The notes below the pieces were generated by a model. It was not told the origin of the DNA and did not search any database. It worked only from the letters and a program-made list of their open reading frames with translations. A program made the translations under genes and the position numbers. This document shows, one piece after another, positions 8,498 to 49,094 of a stretch of DNA of 64,000 nt (its first letter is position 1; the number at the start of each line of letters is the position of its first letter). The stretch covers positions 186,001 to 250,000 of the forward strand of contig NZ_LFVU01000024.1 in NCBI RefSeq assembly GCF_001047375.1, read 5' to 3'. This stretch comes from Clostridium cylindrosporum DSM 605 (GTDB taxonomy: Bacteria > Bacillota > Clostridia > Clostridiales > Caloramatoraceae).

Positions 8498-8500
8498 CCT

Positions 8501-9445
8501 CTACTCTTCCTTTTCTGACTCTAAATTACTTTCTTTAATAAAGTAAAGAGGTCTTTTCTTACTTTCCATGTATACCCTAGACAAATACTCTCCAATTATC
8601 CCAAGTGCTATTAGCTGAACTCCACCTAGAAATGTAACTATACATATTGTTGAAGCATAGCCTGGCATATCTATACCGGTTATTAAAGTCTTACAAAATG
8701 TAAATGCAAAGTATATAAAACTTAACACTGCAAACATAATTCCTATAAATGAGGATACCTTAAGTGGAGTTGTTGAAAATGATACTACTCCTTCAATAGC
8801 ATACTTAAACAAACTCCAAAAGGACCATTTACTATCTCCTACTTCCCTATCAAAGCTTTCATACTCTATCCACTTAGTATCGTAGCCTACCCACTCAAAT
8901 ATCCCCTTTGTAAACCTATGATACTCTTTAAGTGAAAGCACAGAATCAACCATTTGCCTAGTCATCATTCTATAATCAGTTGCTCCAACCTCGATGTTAA
9001 CATCTGATATTTTATTAATTATCCTATAGAACTTCTTCGAAAAATACCCTCTAAACTTTGATTCTCCATTTCTTTTAACTCTCTTAGCAGCTACGGAATC
9101 ATAGCCATCTTCAATATGTTTTATCATGGTGGTAAGAAGTTTTGGTGGGTGCTGAAGATCCACATCCATAACTACTACATAATCACCTTTAGAAGAGGTT
9201 AAACCTGCAAGCATTGCTGCTTCTTTGCCAAAATTTCTAGAAAATGATATATACCTTACACTTTTATCCATAAGTGAAAGATGCTTTAATAAGTTTAAGG
9301 TAGCATCACTACTACCATCATTAACAAATATATACTCAAATACATAATTATTTATAGAACTAGTTATTTCACTGCACTTAGCATAAAAAGTATCAATTAC
9401 CTTCTCTTCATTATAGCAAGGAACTACTATACTTATAGTTTTCAT
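8501..9445 (-). CDS. GT2 polyprenyl-phosphate glycosyltransferase (CsbB/GtrB-like)
   Basis: 314 residues. An N-terminal GT-A domain begins SIVVPCYNEEK (about 4-14) and has FVNDGSSD (about 40-47) and the metal-binding D-V-D in VVVMDVDLQHPP (about 91-102). Two C-terminal membrane helices (about 230-255 and 265-290) are typical of DPM1/GtrB-like enzymes that load a sugar onto undecaprenyl phosphate at the inner face of the membrane. It sits between GtrA (flippase-like) and YfhO (extracellular transfer), completing the three-part pathway. The sugar donor (GlcNAc or glucose in relatives) cannot be read from sequence. Confidence 0.92.
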   Translation of the reverse strand: MKTISIVVPCYNEEKVIDTFYAKCSEITSSINNYVFEYIFVNDGSSDATLNLLKHLSLMDKSVRYISFSRNFGKEAAMLAGLTSSKGDYVVVMDVDLQHPPKLLTTMIKHIEDGYDSVAAKRVKRNGESKFRGYFSKKFYRIINKISDVNIEVGATDYRMMTRQMVDSVLSLKEYHRFTKGIFEWVGYDTKWIEYESFDREVGDSKWSFWSLFKYAIEGVVSFSTTPLKVSSFIGIMFAVLSFIYFAFTFCKTLITGIDMPGYASTICIVTFLGGVQLIALGIIGEYLSRVYMESKKRPLYFIKESNLESEKEE

Positions 9446-19890: not shown

Positions 19891-21096
19891 TTATTTTTTC
19901 TTTCTCTTTAATATTGCAGCAGACCCAATTACTGTGAATGCAGCAATATATGTTACCCCAGCTAGACCGTTAAACTTACTTTTATTATCTGCGACTTTAT
20001 CTAAAGAATCTTTACTTATTTTGTTATTCTTTTGTATTTCCTCATTTGGCTTTAGTTTTTTATCGGTTACGACGTAGTCTCCACCTCTATTTATGTTAAA
20101 CTTAGTGTATCCATCTTCATCTACCTTTTCACTTTCCTTAAAGTCTAATATATCTGTTCCAGCATTTCTATAATATATATATACAGTTTCCCCTGAAAAT
20201 TCTTCTCCAACCTTAACATTAAAATCCATCTTAACAGGGAAGTTATCTTTATTATCAAATCTAATTTGCATTATATCCTGACCATTTGCGGCACTTGATA
20301 ATCCAACTTCATTAAATGTTTTTGCTCCAAGATTCGTTGTTTCTGATGTGTTAATAATATTATCTACATTTTCACCATGAATAGTCCATGTATACCAACC
20401 ATAATCAAATTCAAGACTTGCAGTTTCCTGAAACATTGAATTCAATACATACCTTGGCATTCTTTTTTCACTACCCATGTTAAAGTAAATCCTCTCCCCT
20501 GGAGTTGACCTTCTTGCTCTTAGGGCAACATCTACCCAAGGGTCAATTACTTCTAACTTACTTACAGATCTATTAGTAGTGTTTGTCCCTTTATCTTTAG
20601 TAACCACTGCTTCTAATTCTCTGCCTTTATTTTCACTTAAAGTAGTACTTGAAGTAGTATTCTTTAAAGGTTTATTTACATCTGATATGTTAGTTCCTTT
20701 ATTATTACTACTTGTTACAGTAAGCTCTCTATTACTTTCTAACTCTTTATTTTTATAATTAAATTTATTTACTTTATCTTTGTTTTTTTGTTTTTTCTTA
20801 TTTTCTTTATGTCTTATTTGTTTTTCCTTAATAGCTTTTTTATGATTTAACTTATTATACTCTTCATTTCCTTCTATCTCTTCACTTTTATATGAATATA
20901 GTTTATTCTCCTTTAATTCAAAACCTTTTTCTTTATCGTCAATTTTATTTTTTCCATTAAAACTTTCTTTTGTTTTATGTTTATTATTTTCCTTTTTCTT
21001 TGCTTGTACTGGCATAATTATATTAGAAATTAAAGTGCTTAATCCTAAAAATACTACCATCACTAAAATAAATCTCCGGCTAATAAAACCTTTCAT
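19891..21096 (-). CDS. Exported Lys-rich surface protein, unknown family
   Basis: 401 residues. A signal peptide (1-32, ending P-V-Q-A) is followed by a very Lys/Asn/Glu-rich, low-complexity region (33-125) with many KK and KEN/KNK clusters. Next come a Ser/Thr-rich linker (about 126-185) and a compact domain (about 186-345) starting IDPWVDVALRARRSTPGERI. A final membrane helix (about 377-396) ends in KRKKK, a stop-transfer tail without an LPxTG motif. The protein should be anchored in the membrane with its basic stalk crossing the wall. It lies just after the polymer operon terminator and may serve that operon, but this is inference. No homology is recognised. Confidence 0.75.
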   Translation of the reverse strand: MKGFISRRFILVMVVFLGLSTLISNIIMPVQAKKKENNKHKTKESFNGKNKIDDKEKGFELKENKLYSYKSEEIEGNEEYNKLNHKKAIKEKQIRHKENKKKQKNKDKVNKFNYKNKELESNRELTVTSSNNKGTNISDVNKPLKNTTSSTTLSENKGRELEAVVTKDKGTNTTNRSVSKLEVIDPWVDVALRARRSTPGERIYFNMGSEKRMPRYVLNSMFQETASLEFDYGWYTWTIHGENVDNIINTSETTNLGAKTFNEVGLSSAANGQDIMQIRFDNKDNFPVKMDFNVKVGEEFSGETVYIYYRNAGTDILDFKESEKVDEDGYTKFNINRGGDYVVTDKKLKPNEEIQKNNKISKDSLDKVADNKSKFNGLAGVTYIAAFTVIGSAAILKRKKK

Positions 21097-21229: not shown

Positions 21230-21265
21230 TTAAAAACTCCCTAATGCGATATACTCACATTAGGG
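21230..21265 (-). terminator. Terminator of the VTC-CotH-GT2 operon
   Basis: CCCTAATG (21239-21246) pairs with CATTAGGG (21258-21265). On the minus strand the hairpin is followed by AGTTTTTAATTT. It lies 13 bases past the GT2 gene stop and closes the six-gene operon. Confidence 0.8.
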
Positions 21266-21277
21266 CTAAAAATATTA

Positions 21278-22675
21278 CTATCTTCCCTGATGAACCCTAG
21301 TTATCTTCTCCCAACTAAGCTTATTCTTTTTATATCCAATAAATGCACTTAGCCTATATAATGAACAAAGTTGCCTAAATCCAAAACACTCTAAAAAACT
21401 AATACCTATAAGAACTAGTCCCATCTTCAATGAAATTGTATTTCTAAATAAGTAACTTTCAAATGTTATAGATGCTACAGAAACTATAAAACTATACAGA
21501 ATAAATATCCCTAAATATAGTACCATAAAGTCAAAGTTTAAAAGCCCTATGTAATATGAAAGTGGTATTATAACTATCCCCAAAAGTTCAATTATAGGAG
21601 CTAAAAGCTCGAAAAACACATAATAAATATATGCAACAAGTCCTACTGCTCCGTATCTTGGATTAATAAATACATATTTATGCTCCCATAGACTTTGAGT
21701 AAGTCCCATATGCCAACGCCTACGCTGCTTCTTTAAATCCGATAATTTCTCTGGAACCTGAGTCCAACAAACAGCATCAGGTACATATCCTATATTATAA
21801 TCAATTCGATTCTTAATACAATAGGTATGAAGTTTTATTACCATTTCCATGTCTTCCCCTACTGTATCCGATTCATATCCCCCAGCTCCTATAGCAGATT
21901 GTTTCTTAAAAAGCCCTATGGCACCTGATATTATAAGATTTGAATTCATCTTATTAAATGAAACCCTAGTAGATAAAAACGATCTATAGTACTCTACTAT
22001 TTGAAATAATACTATAAGTTTTGTCTTAGGTTTCCTACCTATTATTTTACCATTTTCTATTACATATGAGTTGGATATCTTGACATTACCTCCAACTGCT
22101 ACAGTCTTATCATCCTCCATAAAAGGTTCAACCATTTTGCTAAGGGTATCCTCCTGTAGAACAGAATCTGCATCAAGTGATAGAAATAGAGGATATCTAC
22201 TAACATTAATACCCATATTAAGAGAGTCAGCTTTCCCTCCATTTTCTTTATTTATTAGAGTTATTGTAACTTGTCCTATAGCTTTTTCAAATATCTCTTC
22301 ACAATCCTTTGAATTTACAAGCTTTCTAATAGGCCTATATACCCTTTTTAGACCATACTTCTCTATAACCTTACTACTTGTTCCATCAGTTGACCCATCA
22401 TTAATAATTACTATTTCATACTCTGGATAATCTAGATGAAGAAGTGAATCTATACTTTCTATAATAGTTACTTCCTCATTATAAGCAGGAACTATTATAG
22501 ATATAGGCATATAGTTAAGCTTATTTGATAATGTCATGTTATTCATAAACTTTCTTCTCTTAAAGAACTTTTCAAGATCTACTATAGAGAAGAATATAGA
22601 GAAGAAAAATATAATAGCATATAGGAACATATAAATCATAAAGAATACATTTAATAAATATATAATATCCTCCAT
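21278..22675 (-). CDS. Processive family 2 glycosyltransferase (BcsA/hyaluronan-synthase type)
   Basis: 465 residues: an N-terminal membrane helix, a cytoplasmic GT-A domain and four C-terminal helices. Catalytic motifs of processive synthases are all visible: PAYNEE (about 60-65), INDGSTDG (about 91-98), D-A-D in LSLDADSV (about 168-175), GED (about 263-265) and Q-R-R-R-W (about 308-312). Enzymes of this type polymerise and export a beta-linked polysaccharide. The ATG overlaps the stop of the HEAT-repeat gene (TAATG). It is the last gene of the operon, and its product is probably the polymer on which the other members act. The sugar cannot be predicted. Confidence 0.9.
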   Translation of the reverse strand: MEDIIYLLNVFFMIYMFLYAIIFFFSIFFSIVDLEKFFKRRKFMNNMTLSNKLNYMPISIIVPAYNEEVTIIESIDSLLHLDYPEYEIVIINDGSTDGTSSKVIEKYGLKRVYRPIRKLVNSKDCEEIFEKAIGQVTITLINKENGGKADSLNMGINVSRYPLFLSLDADSVLQEDTLSKMVEPFMEDDKTVAVGGNVKISNSYVIENGKIIGRKPKTKLIVLFQIVEYYRSFLSTRVSFNKMNSNLIISGAIGLFKKQSAIGAGGYESDTVGEDMEMVIKLHTYCIKNRIDYNIGYVPDAVCWTQVPEKLSDLKKQRRRWHMGLTQSLWEHKYVFINPRYGAVGLVAYIYYVFFELLAPIIELLGIVIIPLSYYIGLLNFDFMVLYLGIFILYSFIVSVASITFESYLFRNTISLKMGLVLIGISFLECFGFRQLCSLYRLSAFIGYKKNKLSWEKITRVHQGR

Positions 22676-23859
22676 TATACTTTTACCTCCCCTCTCTCGT
22701 CTATGATTATTGATTCATATGAGAGTAAATTTATATTTTCTTCATGACTCTTGTAGGCTATATATTCATCATAGTCAATGAAATTCTTAGTAAACATAGC
22801 ATAAAACATTATATCCTTAGCAAACTTGTCATCTCCAGATATAATATCCTGAACTAATTTATAATCTCTTCCCTTTGATATTAATGTCATAGCTGTATTG
22901 TATCTAACATAGTAGTTATTATCAGATACAAGTCTTCTTAACTTATCCTCAGCCTTAGTTACGTCATACTTAAGCATTGCCTTAGATGCCACTACTCTAA
23001 CTTCCCAATTTGGATTATCTAGCATGGATATAATTAAAGGCTCAGAGTCTATATCCTTTACAACCTCAAAGTACTTAATTATTCTCATAATTACTTCCTT
23101 AAGTGTATTTTTATCCTTTAGTTTCTCTATTAAAAGTGGGCTACACTTTCTATAGCCTGTATTTGAAAAATGGCTAATAACTATATTAATCATCTGTGGA
23201 GTAAAGTTTTTCATCTCCTCCATTAACCTTAGGTTAAGTTCCTCTATGTCTCCTTCAAATGAATCTATAGAATCAATTACTATTTTTTCATTAAAGTATA
23301 GCCCTCTTAAAGATATTATCCTAAGTGCATCAACAAACCCATTTAAGTCTCCAATTTTTGATAGGGCCTTTAGTGCATTTACTCTAATATATATAGATTC
23401 TGTATTTAGATTTTCTAAAAGAATTTTATTAATTATTTTATCATTAATTCTAAATTCACCAATTAGGTATATATAGTAGGCAAATTTCATAATAGACTTC
23501 CTATCTACCTTTGAAAATATCCTTACTATTTTGTCTTGAAAGTTTAATATATATTTCTTAGCAAATAATATATTTTCATTATTAGCATATTCCATATACT
23601 TTTTACTAAAAACCTTAAAATAAATAGGAGTATCTAAGGCATCACTTACTAAGTTTAATTCTATATCACTTAATTCTATCCCATTCCTAGTCTTCTCTAA
23701 ATGCTCTAATACAAACTTACCAAACCCCGTTTCAATTTCCTTTAGCTTTTTATTTTCTAACTTTTCCTTTATCCTAGCTATTCCTACATATATCATTATG
23801 CAAATAACAACATAGGAAAAAACACCTAAAGATATTATAATAAAGCTAGTTCCACCCAT
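22675..23859 (-). CDS. HEAT-repeat protein with N-terminal membrane anchor
   Basis: 394 residues: one N-terminal membrane helix (about 4-28), then a cytoplasmic helical domain. Several HEAT-like repeats are clear from about residue 135 on, for example SIYIRVNALKALSKIGD, PNWEVRVVASKAMLKYD and NNYYVRYNTAMTLISKG. HEAT solenoids are protein-protein scaffolds. Its overlap with the GT2 gene suggests that it docks with or regulates the synthase at the membrane, as other co-encoded scaffold proteins do in polymer systems; this is inference. GGGTAGG precedes the ATG. Confidence 0.85.
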   Translation of the reverse strand: MGGTSFIIISLGVFSYVVICIMIYVGIARIKEKLENKKLKEIETGFGKFVLEHLEKTRNGIELSDIELNLVSDALDTPIYFKVFSKKYMEYANNENILFAKKYILNFQDKIVRIFSKVDRKSIMKFAYYIYLIGEFRINDKIINKILLENLNTESIYIRVNALKALSKIGDLNGFVDALRIISLRGLYFNEKIVIDSIDSFEGDIEELNLRLMEEMKNFTPQMINIVISHFSNTGYRKCSPLLIEKLKDKNTLKEVIMRIIKYFEVVKDIDSEPLIISMLDNPNWEVRVVASKAMLKYDVTKAEDKLRRLVSDNNYYVRYNTAMTLISKGRDYKLVQDIISGDDKFAKDIMFYAMFTKNFIDYDEYIAYKSHEENINLLSYESIIIDERGEVKV

Positions 23860-23898
23860 AATAATTACCTACCCTCTATAATCATCCTTTGTTTAATA

Positions 23899-26031
23899 TT
23901 ACTTTCCAAAAACCTCACGCATTTTGTAGTACACAGGTTTTAATCTTTCATGATAATCTGGTTTGTTCCACTTACTCCATCTAAACATACCAAAACCAAG
24001 ACTTTTTTCATTTTTCTCTGTCTTTATTATTAAAGATGAATATATACCTCTAACACTAACATCTGATGGGTTAATAGACTTCATTATATCTCCTCTAACT
24101 TTTCTTTTAGAAGGATCAGAAAAGTTGAGTAGTTGCCATGGAAGCCTTATTTCTATGTTGTCATCTGATACATAAAAGTCTGAAAGACTGTTGTAATTCT
24201 TAGAATTTATATTAGCATTTCCGTATATAAGCTTACCTGTTTCGAAATGTATAGGTTTATATTTCTTTTTATTTGGCCCTACAGTTATTTCATGACGTAT
24301 AGTTAAATAAATTTTATTGAACTTGTCCATATCTTTACTATATTTCTCAGTATATTTTTCATCCTCAGGGTAAGGGCTTTTATCCTTTAATAATGGATTA
24401 TAATAATCATGCACATATACCCTTGAGTTATATTTACCATCTAATTTGATAACGAAATCTACTCCTCTAGTAAAATTAAGTCCAAGAAGACTTGACTTTA
24501 CTGCTCCTGACTTTGGAGTTATATCTAATGGTATATATATTTTATCCCTATTTATATCAAGGCCTTTTTTGTACACTTTCATGTATATATATTTTTCATC
24601 ACTTGTTATAGATAGGCTAGAGTCTTTATCTTTAGTTACTATATCTGACTCCTTCCATTCTGATATATCTCCATCTGGATAGGATTTAACTCTTTCCTTT
24701 CCTGGATCAAATGCCAATATTCCATAGTTTTGTTCACTTGTTTGGGCATTTTGCCAGTATGCAGCCCTTTCAAGGTCTATTCCGTCCATTACGTTCCAGC
24801 TTTTTTTAAACCATTCATCCTGCCAAGAGAATATAATTGCCCCACTTGAACCGGACTTTACTATGTCATCATATAAATCAGCTGTAGCATTTGCCTGCTT
24901 AAACTCATTTACATTTCCATGGTTATATCCTCTAGACTCATCTACATGAGCAAGTCCCCTAGAAGTAGGAATTCCAAATTCTGATATAACCACTGGAATA
25001 CTATGATACTTAATTAGGTCATTTAAATATGCTCTATAACTGTTTTTTCTACCCTTTTCATCTCTATATGCATTATATTTTGGATCAAGGTTAAGAAAGT
25101 CAGGATAATAGGGATATACATGATATGATGCAAACATACCAGATTTAAAATTACTAGTGGATTTTATTTTCTCAGTATCTACACTACCAATAGTGTTATA
25201 TTCCTCAGGTTCATAAGGGTGATCTAATGGGTCTGTTGTTGGCCAATTTGAGAATGCTATAAGTCTTTGATGTTTGTAATTTTCCGTCTCATACTTTATA
25301 GCAAAATCTCCAACCTCTGCAAGTAATACTTCAAATGGACTTGCACCCTTTACTGTATATAAGTAGTTTCCTTTATAACTGGTTTTATCCTCATTAAAAA
25401 GGTCTGTCTGCTGAACAAAATTTCCATCCCATTCTATTCCTAGGATATAGCCAAGTACATATTTAGATACATCCTTCGTATATCTACCACTAGAGTAATC
25501 TCCATTAGGTGGAATATATGCCCTTCCATGTATAACATTAATAGTGCTTTGAATATCTCTTATAAAGTGATTCTTAATCTTAAAGCTAAACCCATTCATA
25601 GTATCTTCTATATTATTTTCATTAACCCATATTCCATGAATAATGTATAAAGGTTTATCCTTACCCCTATTAAATTCATAAAGTGCTTCATAGAAATCAG
25701 GTGATAAAAGTGTATACACTCTTATTACATTGGCATTCATTGCGTATATCTGATTAAACCACCTTAGGTACTCCGCTTTAGTTATCCCAAACTCATTAGG
25801 AAAGTATCCCGGTTTACCTACTCCTATATTTACACCCTTTAAGAAAATCTTCTCAAAGTTATCCTTATTCTTAATGACTATATCCTTACCACTGGTCTTA
25901 GCCTCTACAATTAAATTCTTATGTGTACATTTATTTTCCATTGGAAAAATACTAGTGTAGTAAAATAACCCTATCAATATCGTTGAGATAAGAATTCCTA
26001 CAATTATTTTTATGTATTTTATTGGACTCAT
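23899..26031 (-). CDS. Membrane-anchored glycosidase-like protein (GH-A TIM-barrel type)
   Basis: 710 residues: an N-terminal membrane anchor (about 6-28) and an extracytoplasmic domain. Residues about 55-420 look like a clan GH-A barrel: FLKGVNIG at the start, NANVIRVYTL, then YILGIEWDG with a candidate acid/base Glu, and PVVISEFGIPT with a candidate nucleophile Glu, then IIFSWQDEWFKKSW. A second beta-rich domain (about 450-705) follows, possibly carbohydrate-binding. It could trim or transglycosylate the polymer exported by the GT2 synthase of the same operon. The assignment of the two Glu is from pattern only; the exact GH family is not known to me. Confidence 0.75.
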   Translation of the reverse strand: MSPIKYIKIIVGILISTILIGLFYYTSIFPMENKCTHKNLIVEAKTSGKDIVIKNKDNFEKIFLKGVNIGVGKPGYFPNEFGITKAEYLRWFNQIYAMNANVIRVYTLLSPDFYEALYEFNRGKDKPLYIIHGIWVNENNIEDTMNGFSFKIKNHFIRDIQSTINVIHGRAYIPPNGDYSSGRYTKDVSKYVLGYILGIEWDGNFVQQTDLFNEDKTSYKGNYLYTVKGASPFEVLLAEVGDFAIKYETENYKHQRLIAFSNWPTTDPLDHPYEPEEYNTIGSVDTEKIKSTSNFKSGMFASYHVYPYYPDFLNLDPKYNAYRDEKGRKNSYRAYLNDLIKYHSIPVVISEFGIPTSRGLAHVDESRGYNHGNVNEFKQANATADLYDDIVKSGSSGAIIFSWQDEWFKKSWNVMDGIDLERAAYWQNAQTSEQNYGILAFDPGKERVKSYPDGDISEWKESDIVTKDKDSSLSITSDEKYIYMKVYKKGLDINRDKIYIPLDITPKSGAVKSSLLGLNFTRGVDFVIKLDGKYNSRVYVHDYYNPLLKDKSPYPEDEKYTEKYSKDMDKFNKIYLTIRHEITVGPNKKKYKPIHFETGKLIYGNANINSKNYNSLSDFYVSDDNIEIRLPWQLLNFSDPSKRKVRGDIMKSINPSDVSVRGIYSSLIIKTEKNEKSLGFGMFRWSKWNKPDYHERLKPVYYKMREVFGK

Positions 26032-26056
26032 AGCTTCTCACCCTTTTTAGTATTTA

Positions 26057-27385
26057 CTATCTTTCATTTTTACTATTCCCAGTAAGTTCTAGGTATTCAC
26101 CAGTTTCGAAATACTTGTCCATCCATCTTCCATGATCTTTTATAAATTTTTTCATAGTACTTATCTCTTTTTCGTAGCTTTTATCTTCTCTTAATCCTAT
26201 TTCAGCTACTGCATTATCTATTGACTTTAATACATGATGTTCACTTAAATAGGTTTTTCTAAGAGCCTTATACCTTTTTGAAAGCTTATCTAGAAAATAC
26301 TGATCAGTTAGAAGCTTTTCAAACCAAGGCTCACCCTTCATCCTAAGATATCTATGATTCTTCACCTCATCAAAGTTCCCCATGGATATATTAAAGTCTA
26401 AAGCAGGTCCTACCTTTAATTTTGATCCTAGCTCTTTATAAAAATATATCCCTTTCTTTCCTGCTTTTATATTAAAGAAAAATTCATTAAGGATTACATA
26501 ATCAATGAAGCTATCAATATCTATATATTCTCTATATCCAAATCTTGGGTCGGAATACATTAGAGAATACATTCTCTTTTCTATAGAGTCTAAATCATTT
26601 TGAATATACCTTAACTGACTTTGTGTAACATCACCCTTATCTGGATAAATGCATGTAAGTTGACTCTTCTTCTTTATTCTTTCTGTATATGTAGATAAGT
26701 AATTATCCCCTTGTTTTAAGCTATCCCCCGCTACAATGTAACCTGTTATCTCATAGGCATTAATACTCTTAGCGAGGTTTACTCTATCTTTACTTACCTT
26801 AGTACTTTCAACTATAGAATAAACACCCTTATAATCCTTCATTGTGATTCCTTCAACCTGTGATGTTTTAATAAAAACCTCACAGAGCTTAGCTTGGGGA
26901 GTATAATCCATTATTTTTGATGCTATATTATATACAATGTAGTTTCTAATGAGAGACTTATCTCCATCTGGAGAATTTAATATCCACTTTGAATTTCTTT
27001 TCATACCTAGGACTTCAATATCCCTGGGCTTTCCTTCATTATCTCTTATGTTTATAATATATTTTCCCTTAGAATCTTCTTGAAGATTTATCTCTACATT
27101 TGAACTTTTATTGCTATGTCCCGTAATATTATTTTCTAATTTCTCATTTTGATATAACTCCATCTTAGCTTTCACTATATCTTTACCTATATCTTTACCC
27201 TTTGAATCTATAACTATAATAGGAAGCTTAGATGTGAACTTAACATTTTTATTAGCTATAATTGACCTTTGATTCAAATAATCCATATAGCCAATATAAA
27301 CATATTTATATGAAAGTATTAAAGTAACTCCAAGTACCATAATTAATATTGCTATCATAGTATTATATCTTAACTTATCATTCAT
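26057..27385 (-). CDS. CotH-like kinase family protein, membrane anchored
   Basis: 442 residues: an N-terminal membrane helix (about 8-31), then a domain of the CotH type, atypical protein kinases known from Bacillus spore coat assembly. Matching blocks are LPIIVIDSKGKDI (about 54-66), KDYKGVYSIVES (about 184-195), FIDYVILNEFFFN (about 291-303) and KVGPALDFNISMGN (about 320-333). In active CotH enzymes the last block normally carries D-x-D; here it reads D-F-N, and the loop after NEFFFN lacks an expected Asp. The activity is therefore uncertain. It lies between DUF4956 and the glycosidase-like gene with gaps of 11 and 25 bases. Confidence 0.82.
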   Translation of the reverse strand: MNDKLRYNTMIAILIMVLGVTLILSYKYVYIGYMDYLNQRSIIANKNVKFTSKLPIIVIDSKGKDIGKDIVKAKMELYQNEKLENNITGHSNKSSNVEINLQEDSKGKYIINIRDNEGKPRDIEVLGMKRNSKWILNSPDGDKSLIRNYIVYNIASKIMDYTPQAKLCEVFIKTSQVEGITMKDYKGVYSIVESTKVSKDRVNLAKSINAYEITGYIVAGDSLKQGDNYLSTYTERIKKKSQLTCIYPDKGDVTQSQLRYIQNDLDSIEKRMYSLMYSDPRFGYREYIDIDSFIDYVILNEFFFNIKAGKKGIYFYKELGSKLKVGPALDFNISMGNFDEVKNHRYLRMKGEPWFEKLLTDQYFLDKLSKRYKALRKTYLSEHHVLKSIDNAVAEIGLREDKSYEKEISTMKKFIKDHGRWMDKYFETGEYLELTGNSKNER

Positions 27386-27396
27386 ATAATCTCATC

Positions 27397-28065
27397 CTAA
27401 CCCATCATTTCTCCTGTTTGAGAGACTATATTAACAGTCTTAACCCCTGGAGTTGAATATAATAACTGCATAAGTTTTATATCTTCATTTTCTTTTAGCC
27501 TTATCTCACATACAATCTCTAGTGTAGATTCAGTTGTATTTTTAGCTCTCATTTTATAGTTTTTCAGTGATGAAAATATATTTTTCATAATTGTCTCTTC
27601 ACTTAAACGCTCTGCTTTTATGACTAAAAGATATTTATCCTCACTTTTCATAGCCAATGTTATAATAAATAAAGTAACCATAATAAAAATAGACCCGATA
27701 ATCGCAACTTGAATGTTATCCGTTCCAACAGAAAGTCCTACGCCTATCCCCCAAAATATAAAAGCTGTATCCCTAGGGTCCTTTATAGCTGTCCTAAAAC
27801 GTACAATTGAAAGTGCTCCTACCATTCCAAGTGATAATGCTACGTTACTTCCTATAACCATTATCACAATAGCTGTTATTAGAGTTATCATTATTAATGA
27901 TATATTGAAGTTTTTGCTATATACTACTCCCTTATATGTAAGCCTGTATGTTATATATATACCTATAGCAATAACCAGTGCAATAAATAGGGACTTTGAA
28001 ATCTTAACTGCTGAATAAACCTGCTCATTATCAATGAGATACTGCATAATCATCGATATTTCCAT
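27397..28065 (-). CDS. DUF4956 membrane protein
   Basis: 222 residues with four membrane helices (about 25-150) and a cytoplasmic C-terminal domain. The DUF4956 signature is clear: SLGMVGALSIVRFRTAIKD followed by PRDTAFIFWGIGVG. Such proteins are often encoded next to VTC-type polyphosphate polymerases, as here, and may form the membrane channel or anchor for them; this pairing is a neighbourhood observation, not a demonstrated complex. GGAGG lies seven bases before the ATG. The next gene starts 11 bases later. Confidence 0.9.
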   Translation of the reverse strand: MEISMIMQYLIDNEQVYSAVKISKSLFIALVIAIGIYITYRLTYKGVVYSKNFNISLIMITLITAIVIMVIGSNVALSLGMVGALSIVRFRTAIKDPRDTAFIFWGIGVGLSVGTDNIQVAIIGSIFIMVTLFIITLAMKSEDKYLLVIKAERLSEETIMKNIFSSLKNYKMRAKNTTESTLEIVCEIRLKENEDIKLMQLLYSTPGVKTVNIVSQTGEMMG

Positions 28066-28104
28066 AAATGTTCCTCCAATTACTATTATTCATTAACCTT
28101 ATAT

Positions 28105-28833
28105 CTATATATGGAATCCTCCATATATCTTTCTAGAACTACAATACTTACTTATAGAACTATTTACACAATCCCTAGATGATAATATATCTTGAAACCA
28201 CTTGTATAAATATTTTTCATACTTAACTTCAAGAAGTGGTCTATTAATATCAAGTGTGGGGATCATATTTAGGTCCTTTGAAAAAATATCAAACTCTGTT
28301 TCACTATGGGATATTTCTGTATCTAGTGTTACTCTTATTCCATATTCATCTTTATAAAATGCCTCTCTTTTATACTCTAGGGTGGATACGGGTTTATAAA
28401 TATCCGATACCATGATTGCATAAATCTTCAATGCTATTCCATCACTATAATTAAGTAAAACATCATACTCTCCATTAATAAGCCTTTTAGCATGTTCCCT
28501 AGATATAATAAGTGTTTCTTTTCTTTGATTAAGGTTAAACTTATATTTCACTTCAAGTTTAGCTTTATTATCATTAGGATTATATACTCTTATCCTTATT
28601 TTCTTTCTATTTTGTTCCCCTTCTATCTTGTCGTGATAATCAAGATTATTAATAGAATCAAAGTAAACACTTCGAACCCTATATCCTTCATCAATACTAT
28701 GTAAATCCTTATTGAAAAACACAGGAAACACAGATTTAAAATAATAATAGTCCTCAAGTGTAATAAAGTATTTCATTTCTCGCCTTGAGACTTTAACTGC
28801 CTTTGAGTTTTCATACTTCTTATAATCAAGCAT
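28105..28833 (-). CDS. VTC domain-containing polyphosphate polymerase-like protein
   Basis: About 242 residues, one VTC tunnel domain (triphosphate tunnel fold, as in yeast Vtc4, which makes polyphosphate from ATP). Basic and acidic tunnel residues appear at the expected places: SRREMKYF (about 16-23), GYRVRSVYFD (about 49-58), RKKIRIRVYN (about 74-83), KLEVKYK (about 89-95), LEYKREAFY, RVTLDTE and PLLEVKYEKYL, ending SISKYC. No SPX domain or membrane helix is present. The start at ATG 28833 is preferred over an in-frame TTG at 28851. It is the first gene of the six-gene operon. Confidence 0.87.
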   Translation of the reverse strand: MLDYKKYENSKAVKVSRREMKYFITLEDYYYFKSVFPVFFNKDLHSIDEGYRVRSVYFDSINNLDYHDKIEGEQNRKKIRIRVYNPNDNKAKLEVKYKFNLNQRKETLIISREHAKRLINGEYDVLLNYSDGIALKIYAIMVSDIYKPVSTLEYKREAFYKDEYGIRVTLDTEISHSETEFDIFSKDLNMIPTLDINRPLLEVKYEKYLYKWFQDILSSRDCVNSSISKYCSSRKIYGGFHI

Positions 28834-28942
28834 AGAGCATATACCTTCCAATCCTTATTTAACCTTTTATGTTAGTAAAATACATTTATTATCCTATTTC
28901 CATGTTATTGATTTTTTTTCTATTTCCCCTATAAAATAGAAA

Positions 28943-28980
28943 AAGGTCCTAAAAAGATGGTGTATCTTTTTAGAATCCTT
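28943..28980 (-). terminator. Hairpin downstream of the LiaF-like gene
   Basis: AAGGTCCTAAAAAGAT (28943-28958) pairs with ATCTTTTTAGAATCCTT (28964-28980) with one bulge. On the minus strand the tail TTTTCTATTTTATA follows. It lies 175 bases past the LiaF-like gene and before the VTC operon. The rest of 28834-29154 (321 bases) is AT-rich with no other visible feature and must contain the operon promoter. Confidence 0.6.
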
Positions 28981-29154
28981 ACTTTAAATCTTATATTAAA
29001 TTTTCCATAGACTTCTATGCCTAGCTGTATAGCCTAATGTAAATAACAGGATTATTCTATTTAAATCATTATACCACATATACTAAAAATTGAAATAATT
29101 AAAATAGGTTGTTAACAATCATTATTGTTTAATAGCATATTTAAAATCTCATAT

Positions 29155-36213: not shown

Positions 36214-37218
36214 TTAACATATTCTTGGTAGAACCTCTCCACTCATCATAGGAAGTCTTTTTATTCCACCAAGGGATGTTTTTACATTCACTTCCCCACT
36301 TATCCTCTCTACAACCTCACCTATGATACTACTATCAACTCCTAGACTGGATTGCTTCATAATGCCTAGAAGATTATCTGCATCATCACCATGCACTATA
36401 ACTATTACTTTCCCTTCATTAGCTACATATAATGGGTCAATTCCTAGGAGTCTACTCATAGCACTTACATTTTTCTTAACTGGTATAGTATCTTCATCTA
36501 TCAGCATACTTTTACCTGCAAGTGATGCTATTTCATTAAGAGACTGGGCTACTCCTCCACGAGTCGGGTCTCTCATAATTCTAATTCTAGCATTGGAATC
36601 TAAAATTCTACTAATCAAGGGATATAAGCTACTACAATCACTTTCTATGCTTCCAAGTGTACTAAGGCCTTCTCTTTCATTCATAATACACATACCATGA
36701 TCGCCAATACTACCACTTAGTATTATCTTATCACCTACTTCTATGCTATTTGGAGATAAGCTATGTCTACTATCTAAAACTCCGATTCCTGTAGTATTTA
36801 TGTATACTCTATGTCCCCTTCCCCTTTCAACTATCTTGGTATCACCTGCTACAATGCTGACATCATTCTTTCTTGCTTCGTTTCCCATAGACTTTGCTAT
36901 TTTATCAAGGGAATCAAGGGAAAAGCCTTCTTCTATGATAAATCCGGCTGTTATGTATAGTGGCTTTGCACAGCTAACAGCTAAGTCATTTATAGTTCCA
37001 CATATGCTAAGCTTTCCTATGTCTCCCCCGGTGAAAAATATAGGGTCTACAACGAAACTATCTGTAGTTAATGCTATATCCCCATGTACTTTTCCAATTA
37101 TCGATGAATCACTTTGCTTAAGAAGTATAGGATTATTAAAGTGCTTATAAAATATACTTTCTATAAGATGTGAACTTTCCTTTCCTCCACTTCCATGGGC
37201 AATACTTACTACATCCAT
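36214..37218 (-). CDS. hypE: Hydrogenase maturation factor HypE
   Basis: 334 residues, the usual size. HypE dehydrates the carbamoyl group passed on by HypF to a thiocyanate on its C-terminal Cys, the source of the CN ligands of the [NiFe] site. The protein ends P-R-I-C, the required carrier tail. AHGSGGKES at the N-terminus and the PurM-like ATP-binding blocks (DIALTTDSFVVDP, SVVAGDTKIVERG as IVAGDTK) are present. It is the last gene of the operon, nine bases after hypD, with AGGAGG before the ATG and a terminator behind it. Confidence 0.96.
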   Translation of the reverse strand: MDVVSIAHGSGGKESSHLIESIFYKHFNNPILLKQSDSSIIGKVHGDIALTTDSFVVDPIFFTGGDIGKLSICGTINDLAVSCAKPLYITAGFIIEEGFSLDSLDKIAKSMGNEARKNDVSIVAGDTKIVERGRGHRVYINTTGIGVLDSRHSLSPNSIEVGDKIILSGSIGDHGMCIMNEREGLSTLGSIESDCSSLYPLISRILDSNARIRIMRDPTRGGVAQSLNEIASLAGKSMLIDEDTIPVKKNVSAMSRLLGIDPLYVANEGKVIVIVHGDDADNLLGIMKQSSLGVDSSIIGEVVERISGEVNVKTSLGGIKRLPMMSGEVLPRIC

Positions 37219-37227
37219 GTTTTCCTC

Positions 37228-38304
37228 CTAAATATACGAATATTCTATATTACAAGCCCCTTCACTTGATACCATACAAGGTCCAAGTGGACTTAATGGT
37301 GTACACTTTCTCTTAAAATATATACAATCCCTCGGGGACCTTCTTCCTGTTATTATGTACTTACAGCTACATTTATCATCATCTTCTATAACCTTATCAT
37401 CTATATAAAATCTATGTCTAGCATCGTATATTTTATAATCATGCCTTAGTTCATATCCTGAATTCTCAATTCTTCCTATACCTCTCCAAAGGCTACTAGA
37501 TGATAAAAACACTTCACTTATCAAATCCTTAGCTAAAATATTTCCCTCTTCACTTACTGCCCTACTATAAAGATTATTACACCTATAATCCTTATTTATA
37601 ATTAAATTAATTAAGGAATATATTCCTCCTAAAATATCAATTGCTTCAAACCCACACATGGTCATTGGAGTATTACTTTCCCTCGCTAAGTTATCAAATA
37701 CTTTATTTCCTACTATAGTTCCTACATGCCCTGGACAAATAAAACCATCTATACTAGTTTCATTATCAAGTATTAGGGATTTAAGGGCATTTGGCATTGT
37801 TTTAAGATAGTTTAATATAGAAAAGTTTTTTATATTACTTTCCCTAGCTTTCTTTAATGTAAGTGCAATACTAGGCGCTGTTGTTTCAAATCCAACACAT
37901 ATAAGCACAACTTCACTTTTTATATTATTCTTAGCTATGTTCAATGCTTCAAGTGGAGAGTGAACTATCCTTATATCATATCCTCTACTTCTAGAATTAC
38001 TAAGTGCATCTCTACTTCCAGGAACTCTTAGAACATCTGAAAATGTAGCTAAAATAACATTTTCAGATGTTGCTACTTCTATTCCCAGATCTATATATTC
38101 TCTAGGAGTTACACATATAGGACATCCTGGCCCAGATATAAGCTTTATATTACTTGGAAGAATAGATGGTATTCCATAGTTATAAATACTTCTAGTATGG
38201 GTTCCACATATCTCCATTATTTTTATATCATGCTTTAACATAGATGAAGCTTTATGTATTGAATTTATAATCTTTTTACCTAAATCAATATTATTAAAGT
38301 CCAT
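37228..38304 (-). CDS. hypD: Hydrogenase maturation factor HypD
   Basis: About 358 residues. HypD carries a [4Fe-4S] cluster and, with HypC, assembles the Fe(CN)2CO unit. All signature blocks are present: EICGTHT (about 31-37), GPGCPICVTP (about 59-68), GFETTAPS, and FICPGHVGTIVG (about 190-201). Cys-rich C-terminal ligands (C-S-C, R-D-C, C-T-P, C-N-I) follow. Start is ATG 38304 after GAGG; hypC ends two bases earlier, so translation is coupled. Confidence 0.96.
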   Translation of the reverse strand: MDFNNIDLGKKIINSIHKASSMLKHDIKIMEICGTHTRSIYNYGIPSILPSNIKLISGPGCPICVTPREYIDLGIEVATSENVILATFSDVLRVPGSRDALSNSRSRGYDIRIVHSPLEALNIAKNNIKSEVVLICVGFETTAPSIALTLKKARESNIKNFSILNYLKTMPNALKSLILDNETSIDGFICPGHVGTIVGNKVFDNLARESNTPMTMCGFEAIDILGGIYSLINLIINKDYRCNNLYSRAVSEEGNILAKDLISEVFLSSSSLWRGIGRIENSGYELRHDYKIYDARHRFYIDDKVIEDDDKCSCKYIITGRRSPRDCIYFKRKCTPLSPLGPCMVSSEGACNIEYSYI

Positions 38305-38305
38305 A

Positions 38306-38530
38306 TTAATCCTCACTTAAACTTGCTATTTCCTTAAGAAGTTCTAAATTTTCCCTTGCACCTTCTTCACTAATCTTTTCTATAGCACATCCTACATGAA
38401 CAAGTACATAGTCTCCTATTTGTAGATTTTCTATTAGTGATGTATTAACTGTCATCTCAACTCCCTCAAAATCAACTATAGACTCCCTTTGATAAACCTT
38501 AACAACCATTCCTGGAACCGCAACACACAT
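38306..38530 (-). CDS. hypC: Hydrogenase maturation chaperone HypC
   Basis: 74 residues. HypC begins M-C-V-A-V-P-G, and the Cys directly after Met is essential for holding the Fe(CN)2CO group and binding the large subunit. This fixes the start at 38530 (GAGGTG precedes it) rather than an upstream in-frame ATG at 38548. The Y-V-L-V-H-V-G-C-A-I block (about 42-51), conserved in the family, is present. It overlaps neither neighbour and lies between hypF and hypD. Confidence 0.96.
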   Translation of the reverse strand: MCVAVPGMVVKVYQRESIVDFEGVEMTVNTSLIENLQIGDYVLVHVGCAIEKISEEGARENLELLKEIASLSED

Positions 38531-38540
38531 ATAATCACCT

Positions 38541-40775
38541 CTATGCATCCTTAATTAATTCATTTGCAATAAATATCTGTCCAAGAGATATACCACTATC
38601 ATTACAAGGAACAATTCTATGAGTTAGTACCTTAAAACCATTATTTTTAAGTGAATTATAAATCCCCTCTAACAAAAGGCCATTTTGAAATACTCCTCCA
38701 CTTAGTGCAACTGTATTTATACTGCTTTCATTCCTTAACCTTATGCATATATAAGCTACGAAACCAATAATGGTATTGTGAAGTTTTAATGCTATGTCCT
38801 CATATGATATAGATAGTTTCATGTCCTTAAGTATCCCCCTTATTATACCTGTAGTATCAATAGTAAAAGGCTCGGCACTTACTTTATAATCATATATCCC
38901 ACTGTACTTTCCACCTTTAGCTAACTCCTCTAGATAAACTGCCGCCTCACCCTCATAGCTAATATCACCTTTAAATCCTAATATAGAAGCAATTCCATCA
39001 AACAGCCTTCCTATACTTGATGTATGGGGACAATTAATCTTCTTATCTATCATTTTAAGAATTACATCTACATCCTCTTCATCTTTGAAAACAGAGTTTA
39101 GAAAATCTCTAGATTTAGTAGCTGTATAAATTAATCCTATCCCTATCTTCCAAGGTGATAGAGTTGCCCCATCTCCTCCTGGAAGTACAAAGGGATTTAT
39201 ATATCCCTTTCTTTCATAACTTTTTACTGTACATATAAGAAATTCTCCACCAAGAAGTTCTCCATCCTCACCATAACCTAGCCCATCAAATGCAATTCCA
39301 ATAACACTATTAAAGTAACCATTCTCAGCCATACACGAAACTATATGTGCATGATGATGATAGATTTGCAATTTATCTATACTTGATTCACTTAAAATAG
39401 GGTTACTTTTCATATATAGGTGAAGGTCATAGGCAAGAAGCTTCTCATCAATGTCATATATATTCTTAAAGTTATCAAAAACCTTTTTATATCTTTTCTC
39501 TGTAGCTAAAGAATCTATATCTCCTATATAGGGAGAAGTAAACACATAATTGTCCTTACTTAATGATATTGTGTTTTTCATAAGTGCACCAAAGGATATA
39601 ATCCCATCTGTCACTTCTTTCTTTATGGATAGTGGATAGTAGCCTCTTCCTGGTCTTATAACTCTTACAGCTTCCCCTTGAACCTTTACTATAGAGTCAT
39701 CTACTCCTATGTGTATATCTCTATTGTGAAGTAGATAGTAATCCGCTATTTCTTGCACTTTATCTAGTTCATGATCCTCATATATAATAGGTTCACTTCC
39801 TCTATTAGCACTTGTAAATACAAGGGATTCTATACCATCTTGAAATAACATAACATGAAGAGGAGTATATGGAAGAACTACCCCTAGAGTTGAAAGATTA
39901 GATATACTATTCATATCACCTTTATTAACCTTCTCAAGTATTACAATAGGCTTAACACTTCCACTTAGTGTATCCTCCTCAAGTCTTGATATATAGCAGT
40001 ATTTTCTTACTATATCTATATTTTTCATCATAATACCTAGAGGCTTTCTAGCACGCCTCTTCCATCCTCTAAGTTTTTCAACTACTTTCTCTGAGGTTAT
40101 ACATATTAAGTTATATCCAGTTAGCCCCTTAACACACAATATATTTCCCTTTCTTAAAAGCTCTACTATACTTTTGATCTCGTCATTACACTTTACAATT
40201 TCTCCATTTCTATCTAGCAACTTAAGTGAAGGACCACATTCTCTACAACATATAGGCTGTGAATGAAATCTTCTATCTATTAGATTCTCATACTCTTCTT
40301 TGCATTTACTACACATACTAAAATCATTCATAGTGGTACCTTCCCTATCGTAGGGAAGGGATTTTGTTATTGAGTATCTAGGTCCACAGTTTGTACAGTT
40401 TGTAAATGGATACCTATATCTTCTACCAACTTCCTCTATATCTCTTAGACAATTATCACAGGTAGCTATATCAGGAAGCATTGGAACTGTCCCCTTATCC
40501 CTTTGACTTTCTATAACCTGAAATCTCTTATGTCCAATTACCTCAAGATTCAATACTGATATATCATCAATTCTACTAAGTAAAGGTGCCCTATTATTTA
40601 GATCCTTAAGAAATATATCTATGCTATTCTTCTCTCCCTCTACCTCTATATAAACTCCATTAGAATCGTTTCTCACAAAGCCCTTTAGTTTATTTTCTGT
40701 GGCTATTTTATATACAAATGGTCTAAATCCTACTCCTTGAACATTTCCCTTTACTTTAACAAGCTTTCTTATCAT
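38541..40775 (-). CDS. hypF: Carbamoyltransferase HypF
   Basis: 744 residues, full length. Domains in order: acylphosphatase-like (1-90, KVKGNVQGVGFRPFVYK), two zinc-finger repeats (CDNC, CTNC, CSKC, CREC; about 108-185), YrdC/Sua5-like nucleotide-binding domain (about 200-380) and Kae1-like C-terminal domain with HHHAHIVSCMAENG (about 476-489). It activates carbamoyl phosphate and transfers the group to HypE. Its ATG overlaps the hypB stop by four bases (ATGA). Confidence 0.96.
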   Translation of the reverse strand: MIRKLVKVKGNVQGVGFRPFVYKIATENKLKGFVRNDSNGVYIEVEGEKNSIDIFLKDLNNRAPLLSRIDDISVLNLEVIGHKRFQVIESQRDKGTVPMLPDIATCDNCLRDIEEVGRRYRYPFTNCTNCGPRYSITKSLPYDREGTTMNDFSMCSKCKEEYENLIDRRFHSQPICCRECGPSLKLLDRNGEIVKCNDEIKSIVELLRKGNILCVKGLTGYNLICITSEKVVEKLRGWKRRARKPLGIMMKNIDIVRKYCYISRLEEDTLSGSVKPIVILEKVNKGDMNSISNLSTLGVVLPYTPLHVMLFQDGIESLVFTSANRGSEPIIYEDHELDKVQEIADYYLLHNRDIHIGVDDSIVKVQGEAVRVIRPGRGYYPLSIKKEVTDGIISFGALMKNTISLSKDNYVFTSPYIGDIDSLATEKRYKKVFDNFKNIYDIDEKLLAYDLHLYMKSNPILSESSIDKLQIYHHHAHIVSCMAENGYFNSVIGIAFDGLGYGEDGELLGGEFLICTVKSYERKGYINPFVLPGGDGATLSPWKIGIGLIYTATKSRDFLNSVFKDEEDVDVILKMIDKKINCPHTSSIGRLFDGIASILGFKGDISYEGEAAVYLEELAKGGKYSGIYDYKVSAEPFTIDTTGIIRGILKDMKLSISYEDIALKLHNTIIGFVAYICIRLRNESSINTVALSGGVFQNGLLLEGIYNSLKNNGFKVLTHRIVPCNDSGISLGQIFIANELIKDA

Positions 40776-41434
40776 TTTCCCCTCTTATTATTTATTTCAC
40801 TTATAATAAGATTAGAGAGTTCCTCTATTCCCTTATTTTCTCTACATGAAACATTGATTACCTTTATATCTCTATTTATAGACTTTACATCACTATAAAA
40901 CTCATCTAGATTAAAGTCTGTATACTCTATTAGGTCTGTTTTATTAAGTACAACTATATCTGCACTTTTGAACATTGCTGGATACTTTAAAGGTTTGTCA
41001 TTTCCCTCAGTTGTACTTATAACAACAATTCTCATATCTTCGCTTAAATCATAGGATGCAGGACAAACAAGGTTCCCTACGTTTTCTATAACAAGTAGGT
41101 CCAAAGCCTCTATATTCATTTCATCTACTGCCCTTTCAATCATTGAAGCGTCTAGATGACATCCCCCACCTGTATTCACTTGAACAACCTCTATGTTATG
41201 TGCCTCTATCCTCTGGGCGTCACGGGTAGTGTATAAGTCTCCTTCAATAACACCTACAGTTATTCTATCTCTTAATCTTTCAATTAGATGTTCAAGTACA
41301 GTTGTTTTCCCAGCTCCTGGTGAACCTAGTAGGTTAATCGTATATATTTTCTTTTCATCTAGATAATTTTTAAGCTTTCTCGCTACATCATCATTACTCT
41401 CTAAGATATTCTTTTTTAAGGTTAACTGCTTCAC
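40772..41434 (-). CDS. hypB: Hydrogenase nickel incorporation GTPase HypB
   Basis: 220 residues. Walker A GSPGAGKTTVLE (about 37-48), switch/Walker B GVIEGDLYTTRDA and LLVIENVGNLVCP, and the guanine-specific NKTDL (about 164-168) are present. The metal site G-G-G-C-H-L-D (about 98-104) is present. It lacks the His-rich stretch and the N-terminal CxxCGC motif of some HypB forms, so nickel storage is unlikely. It acts with HypA, whose gene ends two bases before, in placing Ni in the large subunit. Confidence 0.96.
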   Translation of the reverse strand: MKQLTLKKNILESNDDVARKLKNYLDEKKIYTINLLGSPGAGKTTVLEHLIERLRDRITVGVIEGDLYTTRDAQRIEAHNIEVVQVNTGGGCHLDASMIERAVDEMNIEALDLLVIENVGNLVCPASYDLSEDMRIVVISTTEGNDKPLKYPAMFKSADIVVLNKTDLIEYTDFNLDEFYSDVKSINRDIKVINVSCRENKGIEELSNLIISEINNKRGK

Positions 41435-41436
41435 CT

Positions 41437-41778: not shown

Positions 41779-41779
41779 T

Positions 41780-43665: not shown

Positions 43666-43667
43666 AT

Positions 43668-48815: not shown

Positions 48816-49045
48816 TGTGCCCCCCCAAAAGTCATATTACAGTGTTTTACATTAAAACACTATTAACTACCCCAAATACCTTTAATCTCACCTAAATTAC
48901 ATACTCTTAATACCAAATATAACATTTAATGACATCTTCATATTTTAACCTTAAGTATATCGTCTTTAAAATTATGAACTTTATGTTAATACTTACATAA
49001 TACATGAATATCCATAAAAATTACAACTATAAAATTCCAATAAAT

Positions 49046-49094
49046 ATAAAAAGGTGCTTATAATATCATATTTTATCGACATTATGAGCACCTT
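49046..49094 (-). terminator. Terminator of kinase paralog 2
   Basis: AAGGTGCTTATAAT (49051-49064) pairs with ATTATGAGCACCTT (49081-49094), one mismatch, with TTTTTATATT behind it on the minus strand. It separates the two kinase genes, which therefore have separate promoters. The rest of 48816-49163 (about 350 bases) is AT-rich with nothing else visible. Confidence 0.8.

What the first reader, a model, noticed from the sequence alone, without database searches (positions are those of the whole stretch)
21278..28833. Six-gene operon joining VTC polyphosphate polymerase, DUF4956, CotH kinase, glycosidase-like, HEAT and processive GT2 proteins
All six genes are on one strand with gaps of 40 bases or less, two of them overlapping, and one terminator at the end. 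The processive GT2 synthase would make and export a polysaccharide, the anchored glycosidase-like protein could trim it outside, the HEAT protein could be a membrane scaffold, and the VTC, DUF4956 and CotH proteins bring ATP-dependent phosphate chemistry. A polymer system in which a polysaccharide or its protein carrier is phosphorylated or linked to polyphosphate would be new to me. The VTC-DUF4956 pairing is known from gene neighbourhoods; the combined function is inference.
Basis: partly seen in the sequence, partly recalled or inferred. Interest (0 to 1): 0.8.

Follow-up and report, generated by a model that had tools for sequence, protein, structure and literature searches.

The report
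Biofilm-sugar operon with exported-polyphosphate module
Six neighbouring genes, kept in the same order in many gut and soil bacteria and often switched by the biofilm signal c-di-GMP, look like a machine that makes a surface sugar polymer together with a module that may push polyphosphate through the membrane and phosphorylate something outside the cell.

Summary
In detail: VTC > DUF4956 > CotH > 710-aa glycosidase-like > HEAT > processive GT2 on one strand, gaps of 39 bases or less, HEAT/GT2 overlapping, terminator-like hairpins on both sides. It is not a chance array. The same six genes in the same order recur in 41 of 118 loci with the 710-aa family, and they make up part of the published but functionally unexplained Clostridium perfringens locus NELoc-2. 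Two modules can be separated. The core is GH-HEAT-GT2 (88 loci; HEAT and GT2 fused in one). The accessory trio VTC-DUF4956-CotH joined apparently once, and exists alone elsewhere, including in this genome. c-di-GMP-I riboswitches lie directly before VTC in 10 of 28 trio loci, and EAL/GGDEF genes flank many, so this is a c-di-GMP-linked synthase-dependent exopolysaccharide operon. VTC and DUF4956 occur in exactly the same 64 of 398 genomes. DUF4956 is a remote MgtC homologue, VTC keeps the polyphosphate-polymerase residues, and CotH is predicted to lie outside the membrane. My model, the last steps inferred: VTC-DUF4956 makes and exports polyphosphate, which CotH uses to phosphorylate the polymer or a partner protein. 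Weak point: this window's own CotH lacks the family's RGxSS loop.

The parts
28105..28833 (-). VTC-domain (triphosphate tunnel) polyphosphate polymerase, no membrane helix
   Evidence: Pfam PF09359 1.8e-33. Profile matches yeast Vtc4 structures at 8.5e-8; Vtc4 K200, R264, R266, K281, K294, R361, R373 fall on conserved basic residues of the family alignment
27397..28065 (-). DUF4956 membrane protein: five helices (N-out, C-in) plus cytosolic ACT/ferredoxin-like domain, remote MgtC homologue
   Evidence: Pfam PF16316 2.6e-11; AlphaFold2 pLDDT 84.9; top PDB hits are the MgtC C-terminal domains 2lqj and 7qa5; hhalign to an MgtC profile 2.1e-6
26057..27385 (-). CotH-family kinase with N-terminal membrane anchor, predicted outside; lacks the RGxSS loop kept in 55 of 57 relatives
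   Evidence: Pfam PF08757 3.3e-38; profile matches the solved CotH 5jd9; alignment A4; motif count; topology
23899..26031 (-). 710-aa glycosidase-like protein: N-terminal anchor, clan-A TIM barrel, C-terminal beta domain; E200 and E351 are the catalytic candidates
   Evidence: AlphaFold2 pLDDT 90.2, pTM 0.90; best fold match GH157, Z 34.4 over 311 residues; E351 invariant and E200 at least 90% in 52 sequences
22675..23859 (-). HEAT-repeat protein, N-out/C-in anchor, cytosolic repeats; synthase partner
   Evidence: Pfam HEAT_2 1.3e-10; positive-inside count N-out/C-in in 61 of 66 relatives; N-terminal HEAT-like repeats fused to GT2 in L057
21278..22675 (-). Processive GT2 polysaccharide synthase (DGS, DAD, GED, QRRRW)
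   Evidence: Pfam PF00535 2.1e-26; nearest curated family PgaC/IcaA 150 bits against a cut-off of 422
21239..21265 (-). Terminator-like hairpin after the last gene (11 pairs, T-run)
28943..28980 (-). Terminator-like hairpin before the operon, after the upstream gene
   Evidence: z-score -3.08

Best explanation
This is a synthase-dependent exopolysaccharide operon of the c-di-GMP-controlled kind, carrying an add-on polyphosphate/kinase module. GT2 with its HEAT partner polymerises and extrudes a beta-linked polymer, possibly an amino sugar because GT2 is nearest PgaC/IcaA and seven relatives' operons contain a polysaccharide deacetylase. The anchored clan-A glycosidase-like protein trims or rearranges the polymer outside. 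In the add-on, VTC makes polyphosphate from ATP in the cytosol. DUF4956, its obligate MgtC-like membrane partner, receives the chain and carries it across, as the membrane part of the yeast VTC complex does. CotH sits outside, where ATP is scarce, and uses exported polyphosphate to phosphorylate the nascent polymer or a co-exported protein. Shown by computation: operon, conservation, module split, obligate VTC-DUF4956 pairing, residue conservation, predicted topology, c-di-GMP riboswitches in relatives. Inferred: polymer chemistry, polyphosphate export, CotH donor and substrate.
For: Exact six-gene order in 41 of 118 loci; GH-HEAT-GT2 consecutive in 88. HEAT-GT2 fusion. c-di-GMP-I riboswitch at the VTC start in 10 of 28 trio loci; EAL, GGDEF or HD-GYP motif genes within three ORFs in 27 of 39 trio loci. 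VTC and DUF4956 in the identical 64 of 398 genomes, 74 of 75 DUF4956 genes within 3 kb of VTC on the same strand; both also ring in the same 3 of 14 control genomes. CotH within 6 kb in 42 of 78 VTC loci. Where CotH is absent, the Cthe_2159 family, mostly with an N-terminal export-type segment, usually takes its place. Vtc4 catalytic residues kept. Predicted topology: VTC cytosolic, CotH and GH outside, HEAT inside. No PPK1 in the genome, so VTC is a candidate polyphosphate maker. Deacetylase gene in 7 loci, all of them trio loci.
Against: No c-di-GMP riboswitch reaches threshold before this window's own operon, and no GGDEF/EAL gene adjoins it, though the genome has 17 GGDEF matches. This window's CotH lacks the RGxSS loop and may be impaired. 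MgtC proteins are known as regulators, not channels (general knowledge). VTC-DUF4956(-CotH) mostly occurs without this polysaccharide synthase, so its own job need not concern polysaccharide. Nothing tested here shows polyphosphate synthesis or export.
Confidence: 0.5

Rival explanations
1. Same exopolysaccharide operon, but exported polyphosphate is itself a matrix component: a polyanion that complexes a partly deacetylated, cationic polymer. CotH or Cthe_2159 only anchors or phosphorylates a surface protein.
For: A contiguous CotH, poly-phosphate polymerase and DUF4956 set is also attached to Pel operons (PMC7112168), and Pel is partly cationic (general knowledge). Polysaccharide deacetylase genes occur in seven trio operons. 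Cthe_2159, named a carbohydrate-binding family, can replace CotH.
Against: CotH, an enzyme family, is present in all 41 complete trio operons, and its DFN motif is kept in all 57 copies checked, which suggests catalysis matters. No deacetylase adjoins this window's operon.
Confidence: 0.2
2. CotH is a regulatory or structural protein kinase acting on the synthase complex, and VTC-DUF4956 serves phosphate or energy homeostasis; the trio is merely co-regulated by c-di-GMP.
For: The authors of PMC7112168 proposed CotH regulation of Pel synthesis. Standalone trio loci often carry divergent two-component-type genes. MgtC relatives are regulators (general knowledge).
Against: CotH has an N-terminal anchor with predicted N-in/C-out topology (33 of 37; 22 of 22 standalone copies have the hydrophobic segment), which puts the kinase on the wrong side for regulating a cytosolic synthase with ATP.
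Confidence: 0.2
3. VTC here is not a polymerase but another triphosphate-tunnel enzyme (for example a tripolyphosphatase), and the module does something unrelated to polyphosphate.
For: Triphosphate-tunnel enzymes have several activities (general knowledge); the match to Vtc4 is remote, E 8.5e-8.
Against: It falls in the Pfam VTC family with no CYTH match, and the seven mapped Vtc4 tunnel residues are kept.
Confidence: 0.1

Closest known systems
Clostridium perfringens NELoc-2, CP4_0463-CP4_0468 (Lepp 2010, PMC2879425)
   Same: Same six gene types in the same order; annotated lengths 230, 222, 497, 685, 377 and 466 aa resemble this window and closely match Clostridium-type loci L245-L247.
   Different: NELoc-2 has a second VTC-DUF4956-type pair, a resolvase and a sigma factor; no function has been assigned, and the DUF4956-sized protein was labelled a tubulin/FtsZ GTPase. 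I compared annotations, not its sequence.
Gram-positive Pel operon accessory set: CotH, poly-phosphate polymerase, DUF4956, DUF4832 (PMC7112168)
   Same: The same trio joined to an exopolysaccharide operon.
   Different: A different synthase: no pelDEADAFG genes here, but GT2 with HEAT and a different glycosidase-like family.
PNAG synthase systems IcaADBC / PgaABCD
   Same: Processive GT2 nearest to PgaC/IcaA; a deacetylase in some relatives' operons.
   Different: Far below the family cut-off; no IcaD/PgaD partner seen; HEAT partner and polyphosphate module added; no deacetylase in this window's operon.
Yeast VTC polyphosphate polymerase complex (PMC9911596)
   Same: TTM polymerase domain with conserved catalytic residues, and an obligate membrane partner.
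   Different: The membrane part is an MgtC-like separate protein, not the fused or Vtc1-type domain; no SPX domain.
Clostridial cellulose synthase ccsZABHI (PMC7710045)
   Same: A clostridial synthase operon with a TIM-barrel glycosidase (GH5 CcsZ).
   Different: GT2 scores 50 bits against the cellulose-synthase model (cut-off 699); the glycosidase-like protein has no Pfam match, so it is not recognisably GH5; HEAT and the trio are absent from the described Ccs set.

Membership tests
Synthase-dependent exopolysaccharide operon | Membrane-embedded processive GT2 with D,D,D,QxxRW | tested here: met
   Pfam GT2 matches, four predicted helices, QRRRW
Synthase-dependent exopolysaccharide operon | Associated extracytoplasmic glycosidase or deacetylase | tested here: met
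   TIM-barrel model with N-in/C-out anchor
Synthase-dependent exopolysaccharide operon | c-di-GMP control | tested here: inconclusive
   Riboswitches and EAL/GGDEF genes in relatives; none found at this window's operon
PNAG (IcaA/PgaC) system | GT2 above the PgaC/IcaA equivalog cut-off | tested here: not met
   150 bits against 422
PNAG (IcaA/PgaC) system | De-N-acetylase in the operon | tested here: not met
   None in the window's operon; seven relatives have one; eight deacetylase matches lie elsewhere in the genome
VTC polyphosphate polymerase | VTC domain with catalytic tunnel residues | tested here: met
VTC polyphosphate polymerase | Polyphosphate synthesis from ATP | not testable with these tools
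   needs purified protein
CotH kinase | Pfam CotH domain with conserved Asp (DFN) and Lys | tested here: met
   D330 and K106 invariant in alignment A4
CotH kinase | RGxSS-type loop before the Lys | tested here: not met
   Present in 55 of 57 relatives; window reads INLQEDS-KGKY
MgtC family | Helical N-terminal domain plus ACT-like C-terminal domain | tested here: met
   AlphaFold2 model, PDB hits 2lqj and 7qa5, hhalign 2.1e-6
MgtC family | Above the PF02308 gathering score | tested here: not met
   No PF02308 match for this protein; relatives' DUF4956 genes match at 8e-5 to 9e-4, below the cut-off. So filed as a remote homologue, not a member
GH157 | Sequence-level family membership | tested here: inconclusive
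   Best fold match, Z 34.4, 17% identity, but no sequence match in PDB; no CAZy models at hand
Pel operon | pelDEADAFG genes adjacent | tested here: not met
   No such genes seen next to the operon (by reading the ORF list)

The most novel reading that the evidence does not exclude
VTC-DUF4956 is a bacterial polyphosphate polymerase-translocase, with MgtC-like DUF4956 as the channel. It supplies polyphosphate as the phosphoryl donor for extracytoplasmic CotH kinases, which phosphorylate an exopolysaccharide or surface protein outside the cell, under c-di-GMP control.
Probability: 0.28. Interest if true: 0.92.

Novelty: new variant of a known kind. Interest (0 to 1): 0.62.

Why it matters
DUF4956 has almost no literature (three papers in the library name it), yet with bacterial VTC it forms one of the tightest gene pairs seen here. 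If the pair exports polyphosphate, it answers how a CotH-type kinase can work outside the cell without ATP, gives a function to an MgtC-like family, and adds phosphate chemistry to c-di-GMP-controlled biofilm polymers. It would also give a testable function to a disease-associated but unexplained locus (NELoc-2) and to a system found across Bacillota and in Actinomycetota.

Tried and rejected
Single-sequence searches of VTC and CotH against PDB gave nothing; profiles were needed. The 710-aa family has no sequence match in PDB even at E 10 and none in PHROGs. Rejected: orthology to cellulose, PNAG or NodC synthases (all far below cut-offs). Rejected: Pel accessory set as such (no pel genes). 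Rejected: a c-di-GMP riboswitch before this operon. A sub-threshold rli56 hit (28.6 bits, cut-off 47) at 28926-29011 overlaps the terminator-like hairpin and is not taken as evidence. Considered: that trio and core are merely neighbours; rejected because the order and short gaps persist between proteins only about 30-50% identical. Malformed calls and one bad coordinate set (84) gave no data. A naive K/R count left CotH and GH topology ambiguous; net charge settled it. The GH tree needs 3 label changes, explained by three core-labelled rows on contigs cut near the operon (L049, L113, L138). A lead from a twisted-stalk gene cluster with a CotH protein had no VTC or DUF4956 and was dropped.
Full report
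OBSERVATION. The window holds six minus-strand genes in the order VTC (28105-28833), DUF4956 (27397-28065), CotH (26057-27385), a 710-aa protein (23899-26031), HEAT (22675-23859) and GT2 (21278-22675), with gaps of 39, 11, 25, 39 and -1 nt. Pfam confirms five of the families and none for the 710-aa protein. A terminator-like hairpin follows GT2 and another lies between the upstream gene and VTC.

CONSERVATION. A search with the 710-aa protein found it in 27 of 391 genomes of the class, scattered over many families. Local profiles show all six genes in exactly this order in 41 of 118 loci, and GH-HEAT-GT2 consecutive in 88; at least two loci are the same sequence seen through two collections, so the independent number is a little lower. 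Median gaps in the six-gene loci are 19 nt or less. Five species in the genus of G249 (loci L245-L249) carry the six genes; three of these have lengths (681-686, 374-376, 470-475 aa for GH, HEAT, GT2) very close to the NELoc-2 annotation.

TWO MODULES. GH-HEAT-GT2 occurs without the trio in about half of the loci. One genome fuses N-terminal HEAT-like repeats to GT2 in a 1010-aa protein (the repeats were seen by eye, and the separate HEAT profile did not reach it). In the GT2 tree, loci with and without the trio separate on one branch, although that branch has support of only 67; the GH tree agrees apart from rows on cut contigs. The trio therefore seems to have joined, or left, the synthase once. 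The trio also stands alone: this genome has a second VTC-DUF4956-CotH set on contig 11, and most VTC loci in the phylum lack the synthase.

VTC-DUF4956 IS AN OBLIGATE PAIR. Among 398 genomes of the phylum, VTC occurs in 64 and DUF4956 in exactly the same 64; 74 of 75 DUF4956 genes lie within 3 kb of a VTC gene on the same strand. Both families also ring in the same three of 14 control genomes, including an archaeon. CotH occurs in 56 genomes, 50 of them shared, and lies within 6 kb of 42 of 78 VTC matches. Of 38 pair loci examined, 20 have CotH alone nearby, 12 have the Cthe_2159 family instead, 1 has both and 5 neither by local profiles; two of those five do hold CotH by Pfam. Nearly every CotH or Cthe_2159 copy there has an N-terminal hydrophobic segment (22 of 22 and 12 of 14).

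WHAT THE PROTEINS ARE. VTC: the family profile matches yeast Vtc4 (8.5e-8), and Vtc4 K200, R264, R266, K281, K294, R361 and R373 fall on basic residues conserved in the 20 aligned sequences; R264A/R266A/E426N was used to inactivate yeast VTC (PMC9911596). No VTC has a membrane helix. DUF4956: the model (pLDDT 84.9) has five long helices and a beta-alpha-beta-beta-alpha-beta domain. The two best PDB matches are MgtC C-terminal domains, profile comparison with MgtC gives 2.1e-6 over nearly the whole length, and the MgtC Pfam model weakly hits DUF4956 genes of relatives. Invariant basic residues R89, R91, K95 and R98 lie in and beside a loop predicted cytosolic. CotH: a remote match to the solved CotH 5jd9, with D330 and K106 invariant, but this window's copy lacks the RGxSS loop that 55 of 57 relatives keep. 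710-aa protein: a confident model (90.2) of a clan-A TIM barrel; the best fold match is GH157 (solved with laminari-oligosaccharides; Z 34.4, 2.3 A, 311 residues), clear of GH2 enzymes at 27.9. E351 is invariant and E200 conserved in at least 90% of 52 sequences, as expected of a retaining pair; some 1000-residue paralogues look degenerate. GT2: nearest PgaC/IcaA but far below its cut-off. Topology by charge: CotH N-in/C-out 33 of 37, GH 89 of 95, HEAT N-out/C-in 49 of 65 (61 of 66 by K/R count).

REGULATION. c-di-GMP-I riboswitches lie directly at the VTC start in 10 of 28 trio loci scanned (L085, L089, L091, L095, L097, L102, L107, L110, L111, L112). EAL, GGDEF or HD-GYP motif genes lie within three ORFs in 27 of 39 trio loci and 10 of 41 core loci, confirmed by Pfam for examples; no background rate was measured. 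The window's operon has neither, although the genome has 17 GGDEF matches.

MECHANISM. Shown computationally: an operon conserved as a unit, two modules, an obligate VTC-DUF4956 pair, conserved catalytic residues, predicted sides of the membrane, c-di-GMP control in relatives. Inferred: GT2-HEAT makes and extrudes a beta-linked polymer, possibly an amino-sugar polymer (nearest PgaC; deacetylase genes in seven trio operons); GH edits it outside; VTC makes polyphosphate and DUF4956 carries it across, by analogy with the yeast complex; CotH, outside and without ATP, uses it as donor. The substrate could be the polymer, GH, CotH itself or a surface protein. That the trio lives mostly without this synthase warns against tying its function to this polymer.

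KNOWN OR NEW. The gene list is known: it is NELoc-2 of C. perfringens (PMC2879425), found again in later strain surveys (PMC11677781, PMC5964661) with no function assigned. The same accessory set was noted beside Gram-positive Pel operons (PMC7112168). New here, as far as the library shows: the breadth and fixed order, the core/accessory split, the riboswitches, the one-to-one VTC-DUF4956 pairing, the MgtC relation, the CotH/Cthe_2159 alternation, and the glycosidase-like family's fold. No bioRxiv papers and few subscription papers could be searched.

LIMITS. Its CotH may be degenerate, so the kinase step should be tested on canonical relatives. Hydrophobicity and charge counts are crude topology predictors. 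NELoc-2 was compared by annotation only.

Noticed in passing
L003 (genome contig 11, 5000-24000), 6491-9740: A second, standalone VTC-DUF4956-CotH set in the same genome, with an intact-looking CotH (PKGNSS and DYN motifs).
   Followed up: partly
L183-L222, genes beside VTC: Standalone VTC-DUF4956 loci often lie next to divergent genes of about 225 and 410 aa, shown by Pfam in L200 to be a response regulator and a histidine kinase; the signal is unknown.
   Followed up: partly
L183, L185, L188, L192, L201, L203, L217: Cthe_2159 (PF14262, carbohydrate-binding) replaces CotH near VTC-DUF4956; no paper found in the library that links it to polyphosphate.
   Followed up: partly
L044, L051, L108, L117, L120, L130, L135: Core-type operons with several paralogues of the glycosidase-like family (about 1015, 736 and 720 aa) around HEAT-GT2; the long one appears to have lost catalytic-site residues in L044 and L051.
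   Followed up: no
window 6011-9445 (-): YfhO-like membrane protein next to a GT2 of the polyprenyl-phosphate glycosyltransferase type, probably a wall-polymer glycosylation pair (by eye).
   Followed up: no
window 19891-21096 (-): 401-aa surface-type protein downstream of the operon terminator, N-terminal and C-terminal hydrophobic segments, no Pfam or NCBIfam match.
   Followed up: no
window 46722-51257 (-): Two tandem, highly similar 697-aa membrane histidine kinases with a PAS-like region (by eye).
   Followed up: no
window 36214-44558 (-): [NiFe] hydrogenase structural genes with hyp maturation genes in one run (by eye).
   Followed up: no
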